Made by a program: the position numbers and the translations under genes | Shown: positions 8,150 to 43,490 of the stretch, piece after piece | How positions within the stretch are numbered: the first letter of the stretch is position 1 | Layout of the letters: every line of letters starts with the position of its first letter | Notes under the pieces: model-generated | Seen by the model: only the letters and a program-made list of their open reading frames with translations | What the model was told of the DNA's origin: nothing | The model's database searches: none | From: Subtercola boreus | Lineage (GTDB): Bacteria; Actinomycetota; Actinomycetes; Actinomycetales; Microbacteriaceae | Assembly: GCF_006716115.1 (NCBI RefSeq) | Contig: NZ_VFOO01000001.1 | Span: 1,302,001 to 1,366,000 of the forward strand | Direction: 5' to 3' | DNA length: 64,000 bases

Positions 8150-9198
8150 CGCAACCGGATGAGGCGCTGCGGCCCCTCCTCGCTGAGCTCGGCCACGTCG
8201 TCCCGCGACGAGAGGAAGTCGGTGAACGAGCGGTAGCCGAGCGGCTTCTCGTTGAACGACGGATCCATCCGGCGCATCTGGTTCTTCACCGTGCCCGTGT
8301 TCAGCCACTCCTCGGCGTCGCCCTTGGCGTGTCCGATCTGCAGCGCGCGGAGCAGCAGTTCGGTCGCGAAGGTCTGCGGATCCACGTCGTCGGCCTGGTC
8401 GGGCTCGTCGAACGCGACATCTTCGGTGTGCGAGAACATCGGGATCGTCGACACCCGGCGCGGCGCAGGGGCCGTGGCGGCGGGCTCGGATTCCGCCGGT
8501 TCGGTCGACCCCGCAGCATCCGGAGCCCCCGATCGGCGGCGCCGCGACGACCGCGAACCCGAGGCCGCTGCGCCTGTATCCCCGTCGGCCGTATCGCCTG
8601 AGGGCGGCACGACCGTCACCTTCTGGATGCCCGGGAGCGAGTCGTAGTCCTCGAACTCGTCGCACGCCGCGGCCAGCGACGTGCTCGTCGAACCCGCGAC
8701 GCCGATACCCACGACGAACCGGCCGAGACGCTTCGACTTCTGGGCGAGGGCGATGTAGTCGGAGTCGCCGGCGACGATGATCACGTGGGTCAGGTCGGGC
8801 AGGCGGAACAGGTCTTCGACCACATCGACGGCGAGCCGGATGTCTGCACCGTTCTTGGTGCCGCGGGTGGTCGTGGTGAAGAGCTGGGTGAGGTCGACGG
8901 CGCGCGACATGAGCTGGCGCTGGTAGCTCGCGTTGACGGGCACCGACCAGTCGGCGTAGGCCCGGTTCACGACCATGGTGCCGAACGAGGCGGCGAAGTC
9001 GATGATGGCGTCGAAGTCGACGGTGGCCGCGGCGAGGCGTGCGGCGACCTCAGGATCGGCGCCCTGCTTCGAGCGGTCGAAGTCGCGGATCCCGTCACGC
9101 TGGAAGGCCTGCCGCCCGTGCAACTGCTGGTAGCGCGAGATGACGATGTTGTCGAAGTCGATGTAGAGGCCGACGCGTGAATCACTCGGTTCGGTCAT
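8131..9198 (-). CDS. NYN-domain (PIN-like) protein with C-terminal OST-HTH/LOTUS domain
   Basis: 355 residues, ATG at 9198 with GAGGAG just upstream. The N-terminal half is a NYN (limkain-b1/LabA-type) domain of the PIN nuclease fold: VGLYIDFDNI at residues 9-18 supplies two metal-binding aspartates and HVIIVAGDSDYIALAQKSK near the middle supplies the GDSD motif. A proline/acid-rich linker (about 200-270) leads to an OST-HTH/LOTUS-like domain (about 275-350: LLLRALQIGHAKGDAEEWLN ... PLGYRSFTDFLSSR), which in other proteins binds RNA. A predicted RNA-processing or decay factor; the target is unknown. The gene stands alone, facing the repeat protein. Confidence 0.8.
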   Translation of the reverse strand: MTEPSDSRVGLYIDFDNIVISRYQQLHGRQAFQRDGIRDFDRSKQGADPEVAARLAAATVDFDAIIDFAASFGTMVVNRAYADWSVPVNASYQRQLMSRAVDLTQLFTTTTRGTKNGADIRLAVDVVEDLFRLPDLTHVIIVAGDSDYIALAQKSKRLGRFVVGIGVAGSTSTSLAAACDEFEDYDSLPGIQKVTVVPPSGDTADGDTGAAASGSRSSRRRRSGAPDAAGSTEPAESEPAATAPAPRRVSTIPMFSHTEDVAFDEPDQADDVDPQTFATELLLRALQIGHAKGDAEEWLNTGTVKNQMRRMDPSFNEKPLGYRSFTDFLSSRDDVAELSEEGPQRLIRLRPSADA

Positions 9199-9570
9199 GG
9201 TGAGCTCCTCAGCCGCTGTCTCACGGCCCGGATCGGCCGCCCCTCCAGTCTGGCCTACTTGCCCGCGCCCCGCCTCCCGCGCCCCTCGCCCCCCTCGCCC
9301 GCGCCCCTCCTCACGCGCCCCTCTCCCCTCTCCCGCGCCCCTCGCCCGCTCGCCCCCCTCTCTCCCAGCCACCCTGCGTCGAATCGATTCGATAGGACGC
9401 CAAGTGCTCCCATCGCGCCACATTCGAGCAGTTCGGGCCCCATCGAATCGATTCGACGCGGCGGCGCGAGCGCGGGGCAGGGAGGAAGGGCGGAGGGAGC
9501 GAGGGAGGAGGGGAGGTGGGGGTGTGGATAAGTCGGGCGAGGGACGGCGGGTGCGGGGCAAGATGTGCGG
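9199..9570. other. Non-coding region with pyrimidine-rich tract, palindromic element and purine-rich tract
   Basis: 372 bases without a gene. From the left: the NYN ribosome-binding site; a C/T-rich tract of repeating CGCGCCCCTC-like blocks (about 9262-9375); the 84-bp palindromic element (9376-9459); then a G/A-rich tract (about 9460-9520) leading to the DUF559 gene. Open frames that cross it are low-complexity Arg/Pro/Ser strings and are not credible genes. Confidence 0.7.
9376..9459 (-). repeat. 84-bp palindromic element, copy A (terminal inverted repeats of 18 bp)
   Basis: Ends GCGTCGAATCGATTCGAT (9376-9393) and ATCGAATCGATTCGACGC (9442-9459) are exact inverted repeats, each itself holding the palindrome TCGAATCGATTCGA. 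The 48-base middle, read on the minus strand, begins GGGGCCCGAACTGCTCGAA and matches the middle of copy B (10666-10713) at about three quarters of positions. Copies A and B are the same length and in opposite orientation, one on each side of the DUF559 gene. Confidence 0.9.
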
Positions 9571-10707
9571 ATGCGAGAAGCCACCTCACTCCCCCAGCCC
9601 CTCCCGCGTCATTCGTTCCTCGTGTCGAAGGCCCGCGCTGCGGGGGTGGGCGCCGGACGTCTCCGCGGGTCCGACCTCGAAGCTCCGTTCCGGGGCGTCC
9701 GCCGGATCCGCACCGTCCAGGCTGTACCGCCCTCCGAGGCCCCGATGCCCGGCCAATGGCACCCGCGCACGGGCCGACCCCAGGCCGCCGACGCAGCGGA
9801 GCGCGCCGGGCGCGCCGAACGTGAGCGGCGCGAGCGGTTCCTCGCCGACTGCGGGGCTCTGGCGCTGCTCCTCCGCCCGGGAGAGGTTTTCTGCGGTGTG
9901 ACCGCTGCCGAACTGTGGAACGCACCCCTGGCAGCTCGTTACCGCGACCGGGTTCTGCACGTCGCGGTGTGCCGTCCGGGTCGGGCGCGGCGGGCATCCG
10001 GAACCGCAGGGCACACCATCGCGCAGGGCGCCGACGTGCGGGCCCTGCGCCACGGGCTTCCGGTTTCGGATGCCGCGTCGACCTGGCTCGCGTTGGCGGG
10101 TCTTCTACCCCTGAATGAGCTCGTGGCCGTCGGTGATCATCTCCTCCACAGGCCGGTCTTCCCAGATCGGTCGGATCCGCTTCGCCCACACGTCACGCTC
10201 GAAGAACTCGAATCCCGGACCCGAGAGTTCGTCGGGCCAGGTGCGGCCGTGGCCCGCGCGGCGATCAAGCTGGTCGTGACGGGTGCCGAGTCGAGGCCGG
10301 AGTCCCTGCTGCGGCTCCTCCTGAACGATGCCAAGCTGCCTTCGCCCGAGGTGAACCCGACGATCGACGACGAGCGGGGGCGCATCGGCAGGTTCGATCT
10401 CGTCTACCGGGAGTGGAAGGTGATCGTGGAGTACGACGGTGACCAGCACCGCACGGATGACGAGCAGTACGAGCTCGACATGACCAGGGTGGAGCGTGTG
10501 ACGCAGGCAGGGTGGTCGGTCATCCGCGTTCGGAAGCGCGGACTCTTCCGCGAGCCGCGCGACACGGTGCGCCGCGTCACCGTCGCCCTCCAGCGGGCCG
10601 GCTGGCGCCGTCCCGCCCGCCGACCGCGCCCTGTGCCTGCGGCACGCATGTCGAATCGATTCGATGGGACCCGAACTGCTGGAAAAGAGCGGGATGGGAG
10701 CAGTTAG
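9571..10707 (+). CDS. DUF559-domain protein (Vsr/PD-(D/E)XK-like nuclease fold), AbiEi-like N-terminus
   Basis: 378 residues from ATG 9571. The N-terminal part (RHSFLVSKARAAGVGAGRLRGSDLEAPF) resembles the winged-helix start of AbiEi-like proteins; the C-terminal part is DUF559, a Vsr-like nuclease fold: ESLLRLLLNDAKLPSPEVN, then GRFDLVYREWKVIVEYDGDQH with the D...E-x-D/H catalytic-type residues, then VERVTQAGWSVIRVRKRGL. Such proteins are multicopy in Microbacteriaceae and of unknown role. The last 18 or so residues (SNRFDGTRTAGKERDGSS) and the stop codon are supplied by repeat copy B, so the natural C-terminus was probably replaced when the element arrived. No partner gene is present. Confidence 0.75.
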   Translation: MREATSLPQPLPRHSFLVSKARAAGVGAGRLRGSDLEAPFRGVRRIRTVQAVPPSEAPMPGQWHPRTGRPQAADAAERAGRAERERRERFLADCGALALLLRPGEVFCGVTAAELWNAPLAARYRDRVLHVAVCRPGRARRASGTAGHTIAQGADVRALRHGLPVSDAASTWLALAGLLPLNELVAVGDHLLHRPVFPDRSDPLRPHVTLEELESRTREFVGPGAAVARAAIKLVVTGAESRPESLLRLLLNDAKLPSPEVNPTIDDERGRIGRFDLVYREWKVIVEYDGDQHRTDDEQYELDMTRVERVTQAGWSVIRVRKRGLFREPRDTVRRVTVALQRAGWRRPARRPRPVPAARMSNRFDGTRTAGKERDGSS

Positions 10708-10731
10708 CGACCGATCGAATCGATTCGACGC
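10648..10731 (+). repeat. 84-bp palindromic element, copy B
   Basis: GTCGAATCGATTCGAT (10650-10665) and ATCGAATCGATTCGAC (10714-10729) are inverted ends; the middle starts GGGACCCGAACTGCTGG. Same length as copy A at 9376 and inverted relative to it. The 3' end of the DUF559 gene runs into it and terminates inside it. Confidence 0.9.
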
Positions 10732-10828
10732 GGAAGGCGGTGAGAGGTGGGGGCGCGGGAGGGGGGCGGGGAGGGGAGGGAGCGGGGAGGGGAGGGAGCG
10801 GGGAGGGGAAAGGGAGGGAGGAGGGGGG
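10732..10828. repeat. Purine-rich tract with 16-bp tandem repeats and G-quadruplex potential
   Basis: An almost pure G/A run on the plus strand between repeat copy B and the stop of the LLM gene. It contains the unit CGGGGAGGGGAGGGAG at 10767-10782 and 10783-10798, and a diverged third unit from 10799. Many closely spaced G-runs make it a strong G-quadruplex candidate on the plus strand. Confidence 0.75.
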
Positions 10829-12169
10829 TCAGAAGTCGCGGAGGTTGGCGCGGAGGCCGCCGCCGCCGAAGGAGGTGCGGAGGATGCCGCGGCGGCGGAG
10901 CTCGGGCACGGTCTCGTCGAGCATCCGGTGCAGGGTGACGGGGTGGAGGTCGCCGTTGATGATGAAACCGTCGTTGTCGGCCGACTCCCCGAGCTCTTCG
11001 ACGAAGTCCGCGAACTGCACCGCGGTGCCGACGAAGCCCGAGCCGTCGGCGAGGCGTCCCTTCCGGGCCTTGCGGGTCGCGATCTGGCGCACGGTGTCCG
11101 ACGTGAGCGAACCGCCGCGGCCCACGAGGTTGTTGATCGTGCCCTCCGACACGTGCTGCCCGAAGACGCCGGCGGGCAGGGGCCGGTCGAGGTCGTGCCC
11201 GGTGAGGTCGGTCTCGAGGTCGCTCGACTGCGCCGCGAGAACCGAGAGCAGCACCTCGTCGGTCGGATGCTCGGACTCCCGCACGACCCGATCCACCTCC
11301 TCCTGGCTGCCCAGGATCTCGGGCTTGATCACGAAGAGCACCGCGATGTCGGACGGTGCACGACCCTCTGCGATCGCCGCGGAGTGGATGCGCGCGCGGT
11401 ACTCCCGCACGCTCGACGCGTCGAGCGGGGCGAGCGCGAGCTGCACGTCGGACTGGTGCCCGGCGAAGGCGAGGCCGCGACCCGATCCGCCCGGTGACAC
11501 GATCACGGGATCCCCCGCGCCATCACCATCACCAGCGCTGTCGAACGGCAGCGCGTTCAACGGCCCGTCGAGCGAGAAGTACTCGCCGCGATGCTCGAAG
11601 GCGTCCAGCCGGGAGGCATCCGCGAACCGGCCCGATGCGACATCCCCCAGATATGCACCCTCCCCCCAGCTGTGCCACAGCCGCCGCACCACCGCCAACC
11701 ACTCCTCGGCACGGTCGTAGGCGGCGTCGTGAGCGAGTTCGGGCAGGCCGAAGTGCCGGGCGCTCTTCACATCCGTGACCACATTCACCCCGAACCGGTT
11801 GCTGCTGAGGTGCTGCAGGGTCGCGAACTGGCGGGCGGCGAGGTACGGCGGGTAGGCGCCGGCGTTGACGGTCGGCGCGACGCCGAGGTGCGTGGTCGCG
11901 CCGAAGAGGTAGGGGGCGAGCATCAGCGGGTCGTGCTTGGGTCCGCCGTACGCCGAATCGACGCGGAGCGGGAGCGTCGCGGGCGAGCCGAGCGAGAGCG
12001 CATCCTCGACGATCAGCAGGTCGAAGCCGGCCTGCTCGAGTTCGCGCGCCGACTGCTGGTAGAGGTCGGGGCGCTGCCAGGCGTAGTTCCACCGGTAGTC
12101 CGGCCGGCCCCAGCCCTGCGGGCCGAATCCCCGGCCGAAGAACCATCCGAAGTGCTGGAGCTGTGACAT
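10829..12169 (-). CDS. LLM-class flavin-dependent monooxygenase (NtaA/SnaA/DszA-like)
   Basis: 446 residues. A TIM-barrel luciferase-like FMN monooxygenase: FGWFFGRGFGPQGW at the start, the ELEQAGFDLLIVEDAL segment, ARQFATLQHLSSNRFGVNVVTD (typical of the nitrilotriacetate/dibenzothiophene-sulfone branch), YDRAEEWLAVVRRLW and EHRGEYFSLDGPLNA. These enzymes use FMNH2 from a separate reductase to cleave C-S, C-N or oxidise small substrates. It is divergent from the metY-malY-metY operon, which favours an organosulfur substrate, but the substrate itself cannot be read. A leaderless-type promoter precedes the ATG. Confidence 0.85.
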   Translation of the reverse strand: MSQLQHFGWFFGRGFGPQGWGRPDYRWNYAWQRPDLYQQSARELEQAGFDLLIVEDALSLGSPATLPLRVDSAYGGPKHDPLMLAPYLFGATTHLGVAPTVNAGAYPPYLAARQFATLQHLSSNRFGVNVVTDVKSARHFGLPELAHDAAYDRAEEWLAVVRRLWHSWGEGAYLGDVASGRFADASRLDAFEHRGEYFSLDGPLNALPFDSAGDGDGAGDPVIVSPGGSGRGLAFAGHQSDVQLALAPLDASSVREYRARIHSAAIAEGRAPSDIAVLFVIKPEILGSQEEVDRVVRESEHPTDEVLLSVLAAQSSDLETDLTGHDLDRPLPAGVFGQHVSEGTINNLVGRGGSLTSDTVRQIATRKARKGRLADGSGFVGTAVQFADFVEELGESADNDGFIINGDLHPVTLHRMLDETVPELRRRGILRTSFGGGGLRANLRDF

Positions 12170-43315: not shown

Positions 43316-43392
43316 CCAGAACCATCGAGTGGGCGATTTGGGCCCTAAAACACAAGTTTTGGGGCCCAAACTGCCCACTCGATAAATTCTGG
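43316..43392. repeat. Long palindromic element, tandem copy 1 (hairpin; probable bidirectional terminator)
   Basis: Nested inverted repeats: CCAGAA/TTCTGG at the ends, TCGAGTGGGC/GCCCACTCGA, then TTGGGCCC/GGGGCCCAA around a short AT-rich loop. It lies between convergent operons. A second copy follows at 43414 with the arms conserved and the loop changed. Confidence 0.9.
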
Positions 43393-43413: not shown

Positions 43414-43490
43414 CAGAACCAGTCGAGTGGGCGATTTGGGCCCTTCAGCGCGAATTTTGGGGCCCAAACTGCCCACTCGATTGATTCTGG
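43414..43490. repeat. Long palindromic element, tandem copy 2
   Basis: Same nested arms as copy 1 (CAGAA, TCGAGTGGGC, TTGGGCCC and complements) with loop TTCAGCGCGAATTTT. Both copies share the segment GGGGCCCAAACTGCCCACTC with each other, and the core GGGGCCC-R-AACTGC with the 84-bp elements at 9376 and 10648. Pyrimidine-rich DNA lies left (43273-43315) and G-rich DNA right (43491-43560). Confidence 0.9.

What the first reader, a model, noticed from the sequence alone, without database searches (positions are those of the whole stretch)
9376..10731. DUF559 nuclease-like gene bracketed by two inverted 84-bp palindromic elements
Copies at 9376-9459 and 10648-10731 have the same length, 16-18 bp terminal inverted repeats containing TCGAATCGATTCGA, a conserved 48-base middle and opposite orientation. 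Between them is one gene with a Vsr-like DUF559 domain, and that gene's last codons and stop are supplied by the right-hand element. This layout (single-strand-foldable repeats in inverted pairs around an endonuclease-fold gene) recalls REPtrons, where a RAYT transposase is flanked by REP palindromes. A nuclease of another fold mobilising its own flanking repeats would be new. A simpler reading is two independent insertions of a non-autonomous element, or paired LacI-type operators (the two inner palindromes are 64 bp apart in both copies).
Basis: partly seen in the sequence, partly recalled or inferred. Interest (0 to 1): 0.7.

Follow-up and report, generated by a model that had tools for sequence, protein, structure and literature searches.

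The report
Nuclease genes framed by matching hairpins
In this soil actinobacterium and many relatives, genes for a little-known DNA-cutting enzyme tend to lie between two copies of a short hairpin-forming repeat particular to that gene, with further copies scattered over the chromosome, so the enzyme may be an independently evolved counterpart of the proteins thought to spread such repeats in other bacteria.

Summary
The two 84-bp elements are imperfect hairpins; at least 27 places in this Subtercola genome carry the family, so most copies are not beside a DUF559 gene. But each DUF559 gene of this subfamily tends to have its own hairpin family on both sides. Upstream and downstream flanks share a gene-specific repeat in 48 of 70 Microbacteriaceae loci and 20 of 23 loci of a second set (mostly other Micrococcales families); mismatched flanks give 4 of 280 and 4 of 506. 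All four such genes of this genome are framed. Two further families here (about 53 and 11 places) match two of these genes; in another genus, three genes within 400 kb each have stand-alone cognate copies. No Y1/HuH transposase was found in 12 of 12 Subtercola genomes. Layout, matched flanking repeats, fast gene evolution and intergenic placement resemble REPtrons, with a Vsr-like PD-(D/E)XK nuclease instead of a HuH transposase. That the nuclease cuts or spreads the hairpins is inferred, not shown. LacI operators, terminators or two chance insertions explain less. My searches of open-access papers found no description of it.

The parts
9376..9459 (-). left hairpin element (family R1, 84 bp; core 9385-9450)
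   Evidence: R1 83.7 bits; same family at 27 or more places of the genome
9523..9531 (-). TTATCCACA (DnaA-box consensus by recall), 48 bp before ATG 9571
   Evidence: read; same motif at -46 to -48 in 21 of the 31 homologues (of 78 examined) that have TT[AGT]TCCACA upstream
9571..10707 (+). DUF559 / Vsr-like PD-(D/E)XK nuclease gene (ORF possible from GTG 9565)
10648..10731 (+). right hairpin element (family R1; core 10657-10722); supplies the last 20 codons and the stop of the gene
   Evidence: R1 76.6 bits
9258..9349 (+). C-rich low-complexity tract outside the left hairpin
   Evidence: partly aligned in S. boreus G008
10742..10829 (+). G-rich low-complexity tract outside the right hairpin
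   Evidence: shorter in G008
43321..43386 (-). stand-alone hairpin of family R2, cognate to the DUF559 gene at G000:C1 3.63 Mb
   Evidence: 76.1 bits
43419..43484 (-). second stand-alone R2 hairpin, 98 bp from the first
   Evidence: 81.8 bits

Best explanation
The unit is a REPtron-like cassette with an unrelated enzyme: a Vsr-like PD-(D/E)XK nuclease gene (DUF559/MTES_1575 subfamily) framed by two copies of its cognate hairpin element, with further non-autonomous copies dispersed in the genome. Shown: the framing, its gene-specificity, the dispersed cognate copies, stems far more conserved than loops, purifying selection on the gene, and no Y1 transposase found in the genus. Inferred: the protein recognises its cognate hairpin as DNA (extruded, or single-stranded at replication), cuts in or beside it, and repair or replication at the cut copies the hairpin into, or converts, other intergenic places; the framing copies are the master copies and make the gene transferable as a unit.
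For: Flank-against-flank score 40 or more: 48 of 70 own pairs against 4 of 280 mismatched pairs and 1 of 276 other intervals of the same loci; second set 20 of 23 against 4 of 506 and 3 of 138. Strong hairpins: 40 in the upstream 220 bp and 29 in the downstream 220 bp of 80 loci, 21 in the other 484 kb. In G000 all four genes of the subfamily are framed, each by a different hairpin (scores 154, 77, 88, 81). The R2 gene clade occurs in G000, G008, G010 and G011, which have the four best R2 results of 12 genomes (E 2.3e-14 or better; the other eight 2.6e-10 or worse). In G014 three genes within 400 kb have 3, 5 and 3 further copies of their hairpins; 41 non-cognate hairpins hit 0 (40) or 1 (1) place. 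Stems 0.94, loops 0.54, flanks 0.38-0.43 identical among 20 R2 copies; R1 0.81 and 0.42 among 21. D278, E289, H295 and D305 invariant in 72 proteins. dN/dS 0.17-0.24 in five pairs. PF01797: 0 of 12 genomes. A junction without the unit in G011; one stand-alone copy absent in G008 and G010.
Against: Nothing here shows binding, cutting or movement. 22 of 70 and 3 of 23 loci miss the threshold, as do 10 of 28 Subtercola loci, among them the syntenic G008 gene (30), though its hairpins are recognisable. No target-site duplication was seen. G011 has about six L099-type places without such a gene seen, and G010 has two R1-like places without the R1 gene. Loops differ between all inspected copies, so recent copying is not evident. 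Flank orientation is not constant (25 inverted, 21 direct, 2 ties). Other transposases, such as DDE types, were not searched for.
Confidence: 0.58

Rival explanations
1. Regulator or chromosome organiser: the protein binds its hairpin family without moving it; the upstream copy is its operator and the dispersed copies are a regulon or structural sites kept by selection.
For: Stems are conserved and loops are not, as for binding sites; the upstream hairpin lies about 100-170 bp before the start in many loci; a fixed TGTGGATAA motif near -48 suggests a conserved promoter region; 2 of 72 members weakly match an AbiEi antitoxin regulator model.
Against: Only 2 of 44 inspected stand-alone copies are in divergent, promoter-bearing gaps; 25 are between convergent genes (rough gene calls). 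The downstream copy needs a separate reason. Copy numbers differ strongly between congeners. The nuclease site is kept.
Confidence: 0.24
2. Non-autonomous elements moved by some other transposase; the DUF559 gene is a passenger or lies in a hot spot of insertion.
For: Dispersed copies, a site empty in relatives, and one convergent junction that holds an R1 hairpin in G000 and G008 but an R2 hairpin in G010.
Against: Would not explain why hairpins of unrelated sequence frame different DUF559 genes in matching pairs, nor R2 copy number following the R2 gene.
Confidence: 0.08
3. Homing-type cassette: the nuclease cuts sites without the unit, and recombination through the hairpin-flanked ends copies or replaces the unit.
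For: Best meaningful structure match is the Vsr-like homing endonuclease I-Bth0305I (3r3p_B, TM 0.74 on the target, E 0.053). dS between the window gene and the syntenic G008 gene is 1.53 against 0.33 for neighbouring NYN, which suggests replacement of the unit at one site; G011 lacks it there.
Against: Does not by itself explain dozens of stand-alone hairpins; the sites are intergenic rather than in conserved genes; no target sequence was identified.
Confidence: 0.07
4. Intrinsic terminators or paired LacI operators that happen to frame the gene.
For: Many copies lie between convergent genes; the outer 14-mer equals a site next to a LacI-family gene.
Against: No T-run follows either window hairpin (the scan is blind to loops over 8 nt); gene-specific stem sequence is unneeded for termination; copies without the 14-mer exist.
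Confidence: 0.03

Closest known systems
REPtron (RAYT / TnpAREP gene with cognate REPs or REPINs)
   Same: Single nuclease-type gene framed by cognate palindromes; dispersed, mostly intergenic cognate copies; flanking repeats co-vary with the gene; gene evolves faster than its neighbours; gene hardly seen on plasmids or phages (REPtron features from passages of PMC2817692, and section 3 of PMC8266576).
   Different: Enzyme is a Vsr-like PD-(D/E)XK nuclease, not a HuH/Y1 protein; hairpins of about 50-84 nt with a variable loop; no conserved GTAG tag seen in 18 R2 copies; found here in Micrococcales.
DUF559 (PF04480) / MTES_1575 (PF18741) endonuclease-like proteins
   Same: C-terminal domain belongs here; catalytic residues kept.
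   Different: No association with flanking hairpins was found for them in the papers listed (14 papers, listing only). A distant DUF559 relative of the same genome (2.147 Mb) shows no pair (score 37, shuffled maximum 36).
Vsr-like homing endonuclease I-Bth0305I
   Same: Fold of the catalytic domain (weak E-value, TM 0.74 on the target).
   Different: No intron, intein or interrupted host gene here; hairpin pairs and dispersed copies are not part of homing (recalled).
MITEs and CGTC-type repeats without known transposase
   Same: Short palindromic dispersed repeats; CGTC repeats are said to lack a dedicated transposase (abstract passage of PMC3733652).
   Different: Here each family has a candidate partner gene; no target-site duplication seen.

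Membership tests
REPtron / RAYT | HuH Y1 transposase (PF01797) encoded | tested here: not met
   Window protein matches only DUF559 and MTES_1575; PF01797 in 0 of 12 Subtercola genomes, while the control rings in 5 of 14 known genomes
REPtron / RAYT | gene flanked on both sides by its cognate palindromes | tested here: met
   window; 48 of 70 and 20 of 23 loci against controls
REPtron / RAYT | palindromes in inverted orientation about the gene | tested here: inconclusive
   window inverted; 14 of 18 scoring Subtercola loci inverted but 25 inverted, 21 direct, 2 ties; near-palindromes make this hard to call
REPtron / RAYT | dispersed cognate copies, mostly intergenic | tested here: met
   40 of 44 inspected copies outside rough ORF calls
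REPtron / RAYT | GTAG (or like) tetranucleotide tag beside the stem | tested here: not met
   GTAG/CTAC near a stem base in 3 of 18 R2 copies; other tags not tested
REPtron / RAYT | protein cleaves its cognate single-stranded hairpin | not testable with these tools
   needs biochemistry
DUF559 (PF04480) | domain score above Pfam gathering cut-off | tested here: met
   30 bits against 20.6
PD-(D/E)XK, Vsr-like nuclease | conserved acidic/His active site and fold | tested here: met
   D278, E289, H295, D305 invariant in the 72 proteins of A9; in the 78 of A8 H295 is invariant and the other three 90% or more; model pLDDT 89.4; closest usable PDB match I-Bth0305I, no match at E 0.001 or better
MITE / insertion sequence | target-site duplication | tested here: inconclusive
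   longest flank repeat 0-4 bp in 18 R2 copies, mean 0.89 against 0.44 (sd 0.24) shuffled
MITE / insertion sequence | a DDE or other transposase with matching ends | not tested
   only PF01797 was searched
LacI operator pair | operator palindrome is the shared part and a LacI gene is adjacent | tested here: not met
   genes beside the window unit are NYN and luciferase-like; copies without the 14-mer; a LacI gene beside one single site elsewhere
Intrinsic terminator | stem followed by a T-run | tested here: not met
   no T-run beside either window hairpin by reading; the scan cannot see 16-nt loops; other copies not scanned

The most novel reading that the evidence does not exclude
A second, independently evolved class of repeat-spreading system: Vsr-like PD-(D/E)XK nucleases of Micrococcales, each with its own hairpin family on both sides of its gene, recognise and spread (or homogenise) that family, so that one genome holds several parallel nuclease-hairpin pairs whose specificity changes as fast as the gene.
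Probability: 0.5. Interest if true: 0.92.

Novelty: categorically new. Interest (0 to 1): 0.85.

Why it matters
REP-type repeats are explained by one enzyme superfamily (HuH). A non-homologous nuclease with the same layout would show that this way of life arose twice, would give a likely function to a widespread domain of unknown function, and would supply a large natural set of protein-hairpin pairs from which to learn how a nuclease reads a DNA hairpin. It also makes testable whether such repeats are selfish or kept for the host, because several families with and without a partner gene coexist in related genomes.

Tried and rejected
RAYT/IS200-type transposase as partner: PF01797 absent from G000 and from 12 of 12 genus genomes. 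One universal element tied to all DUF559 genes: rejected, each gene has its own stem sequence. LacI operators: see above. Rfam on 9000-11000: only matches far below the gathering scores, taken as chance. Defence-system annotation: no PADLOC or NCBIfam match for the window protein. Plasmid or phage carriage: 3 of 72,556 plasmid records, all Arthrobacter, and 0 of 50,697 phage records. Target-site duplications and GTAG tags: not found. Simple vertical descent of the unit at the NYN-luciferase junction of G000 and G008: disfavoured, because dS is 1.53 against 0.33 for NYN; the first attempt at this figure failed. The fold search gave no match at E 0.001 or better; the top rows are mitoribosome proteins with low TM.

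Rows dropped before counts: one search used 70 of 80 loci (both 400-bp flanks needed); one search used 28 of the 36 Subtercola matches; alignment A9 used 71 of 80 loci plus the window (truncated, frame-broken or duplicate ones left out); one search compared 36 of 80 loci; one search compared 28 G000 loci with the 14 G008 loci fetched. The sets overlap (several Subtercola loci occur in both) and include near relatives, so the counts are not independent. The R1 count in G000 is a lower bound because only 52 candidates were scored. R2 was built from G000 copies, so its scores favour G000.

Full report
What is there. The window lies in G000, a genome of the genus Subtercola by kinship (its congener G008 has contigs of the lengths of S. 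boreus P27479). Two inverted 84-bp elements frame one DUF559 gene as reported. Each is an imperfect hairpin: an outer TCGAATCGATTCGA palindrome, a stem arm of the form GGACNCNAACTGCTC, a variable loop of about 16 nt and the complementary arm. In 21 aligned copies the pairing survives by changes on both sides at 7 of 23 pairs; score and paired cells exceed 500 of 500 shuffles, with the caveat that related copies can do so without constraint.

Genome-wide copies. The exact 14-mer occurs at 25 places in G000 against 2-4 in each of 11 congeners. A covariance model of the core (R1) finds at least 27 places in G000 (52 candidates scored, all used) and about 27 in G008, and matches 15 of 99 relatives at E 0.01 or better.

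The turn. Searching R1 near the other DUF559 genes showed diverged hairpins on both sides of them. Inspection showed that each gene has its own pair: the stems are alike on the two sides of one gene and unlike between genes. Of the 28 Subtercola loci examined (of 36 matches), 18 have an upstream-downstream score of 40 or more, 14 of them in inverted orientation. In G000 all four genes of the subfamily are framed (1.31 Mb, 0.71 Mb, 3.63 Mb, 0.82 Mb), each by a different hairpin; a fifth, distant DUF559 match at 2.147 Mb is not (37 against a shuffled maximum of 36).

Test against chance. A scan of genome contigs gave 348 relatives, of which the best 80 were kept. With 400-bp flanks, 48 of 70 loci score 40 or more, against 4 of 280 mismatched flank pairs and 1 of 276 other intervals of the same loci. 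A second set of 23 loci (18 from other Micrococcales families, 2 from a further Microbacteriaceae genome, 3 Arthrobacter megaplasmids) gives 20 of 23, against 4 of 506 and 3 of 138. Strong hairpins number 40 in upstream and 29 in downstream 220-bp windows of 80 loci and 21 in the remaining 484 kb. Loci below the threshold are not all negative: the G008 gene syntenic with the window's scores 30 although both hairpins can be read.

Cognate families are dispersed. R2, the hairpin of the 3.63-Mb gene, gives 106 strand matches in G000 (about 53 places), 93 in G010, 39 in G008, 16 in G011, 20 in G009, 14 in G005, 10 in G002, 2 in G003, 1 in G004 and 0 in G001, G006 and G007. The R2 gene clade is in G000, G008, G010 and G011 (64-91% identical), the four genomes with the best R2 E-values. 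The hairpin of the 0.71-Mb gene gives 11 places in G000, about 20 in G008 (two of them R1 places) and 6 in G011 at E 0.1 or better and none in the other nine genomes; its gene is in G000 and G008, not seen in G011. G010 has two R1-like places without the R1 gene. In G014, of another genus, three genes within a 400-kb sample have 3, 5 and 3 further copies of their own hairpins, whereas 41 hairpins of other loci give 0 (40) or 1 (1). The hairpin family of the 0.82-Mb gene was not searched genome-wide. The window itself holds two R2 copies at 43321 and 43419.

Evolution. Stems are conserved and loops are not: R2 0.94 against 0.54 with flanks 0.38-0.43 (20 copies); R1 0.81 against 0.42 (21 copies). 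Both families keep an irregular spot in mid-stem: in R2 columns 15-16 with 51-52 vary and often mispair while their neighbours are almost invariant, and in R1 columns 15 and 17 are unpaired. Hairpins change fast between genes: at 55-70% protein identity 2 of 20 pairs of upstream hairpins score 40 or more, at 45-55% about 1 of 102; Mantel rho 0.20, p 0.001 on 36 loci. The two hairpins of one gene nonetheless stay alike (median 54.5). The window gene and its G008 counterpart are 59% identical with dS 1.53 and dN 0.35, while neighbouring NYN has dS 0.33; four other pairs of genes have dS 0.25-0.85; dN/dS is 0.17-0.24 in all five. So the gene is under purifying selection, and the unit at this junction was probably replaced, or gained twice, rather than inherited without exchange.

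Presence and absence. NYN and the luciferase-like gene are neighbours in 4 of 12 Subtercola genomes as fetched. The unit is between them in G000 and G008; in G011 about 55 bp stand in place of 1589 bp, and in G007 there is another gene (GrpB-like by eye). The stand-alone R1 copy at 3.830 Mb lies in about 297 bp of GC-rich sequence where G008 and G010 have 5-6 bp; the copy at 3.824 Mb is matched in G008 by an R1 hairpin and in G010 by an R2 hairpin at the same convergent junction. Four G000 loci have an occupied G008 counterpart among the 14 G008 loci fetched. Of 44 stand-alone copies inspected, 25 lie between convergent genes, 13 between tandem genes, 2 between divergent genes and 4 overlap a rough ORF call.

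Protein. D278, E289, Y290, H295 and D305 are invariant in 72 proteins. The model is confident (pLDDT 89.4). PDB matches are weak (none at E 0.001 or better); the most sensible is the catalytic domain of the homing endonuclease I-Bth0305I. 62 of 72 members match MTES_1575 and 61 match DUF559.

Upstream motif. TTATCCACA, by recall the DnaA-box consensus, is within 250 bp upstream in 23 of 70 loci, downstream in 0 of 70, and in 1 of 350 control windows. Of the 31 of 78 loci with TT[AGT]TCCACA, 21 have it at -46 to -48; in the window it is at 9523-9531. The control windows were not chosen as promoters, so this may be a general promoter element.

Mechanism. I think it most likely that the nuclease reads its own hairpin as DNA and cuts in or beside it, and that repair or replication then copies or converts hairpins elsewhere. 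Shown: association, specificity, dispersal, selection. Inferred: recognition, cutting, spread. The strongest rival is a DNA-binding regulator or chromosome organiser whose sites are kept by selection; stem conservation fits both.

Comparison. REPtrons (passages of PMC2817692; section 3 of PMC8266576; passages of PMC3733652, and PMC8049555) share framing, dispersal, co-variation and fast gene evolution, but are defined by a HuH transposase, which was not found in this genus. I therefore do not file this under REPtrons; it works like one. I call it categorically new because enzyme and repeats are both unrelated; a reader who defines the kind by layout alone would call it a new variant. Literature searches covered open-access PMC papers only, mostly as listings; subscription papers and preprints were not searched.

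Noticed in passing
window 9523-9531; upstream of DUF559 homologues: TTATCCACA (DnaA-box consensus by recall) at a fixed distance of 46-48 bp before the start codon in 21 of the 31 homologues (of 78) that carry the motif; possible link of expression to replication.
   Followed up: partly
window 43321-43386 and 43419-43484: Two near-tandem hairpins of another family (R2), whose DUF559 gene lies 2.3 Mb away in the same genome.
   Followed up: yes
G000:C1 3117259 (L024) and 828406 (L019): Single TCGAATCGATTCGA sites next to MFS-type genes, the first beside a LacI-family gene; congeners have 2-4 exact 14-mers each, so the outer palindrome of R1 coincides with what looks like a real operator.
   Followed up: partly
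window 9258-9349 and 10742-10829; flanks of many stand-alone copies: C-rich tract on the left and G-rich tract on the right of many hairpins, complementary in kind, of unknown origin.
   Followed up: no
G000 3.824 Mb, G008:C41 65518, G010:C28 about 33.9 kb: The same convergent junction holds an R1 hairpin in two species and an R2 hairpin in a third: a preferred site, or replacement of one family by another.
   Followed up: partly
stems of R1 and R2: Both families keep an irregular spot at stem columns 15-17, which recalls the bulge of some REPs.
   Followed up: no
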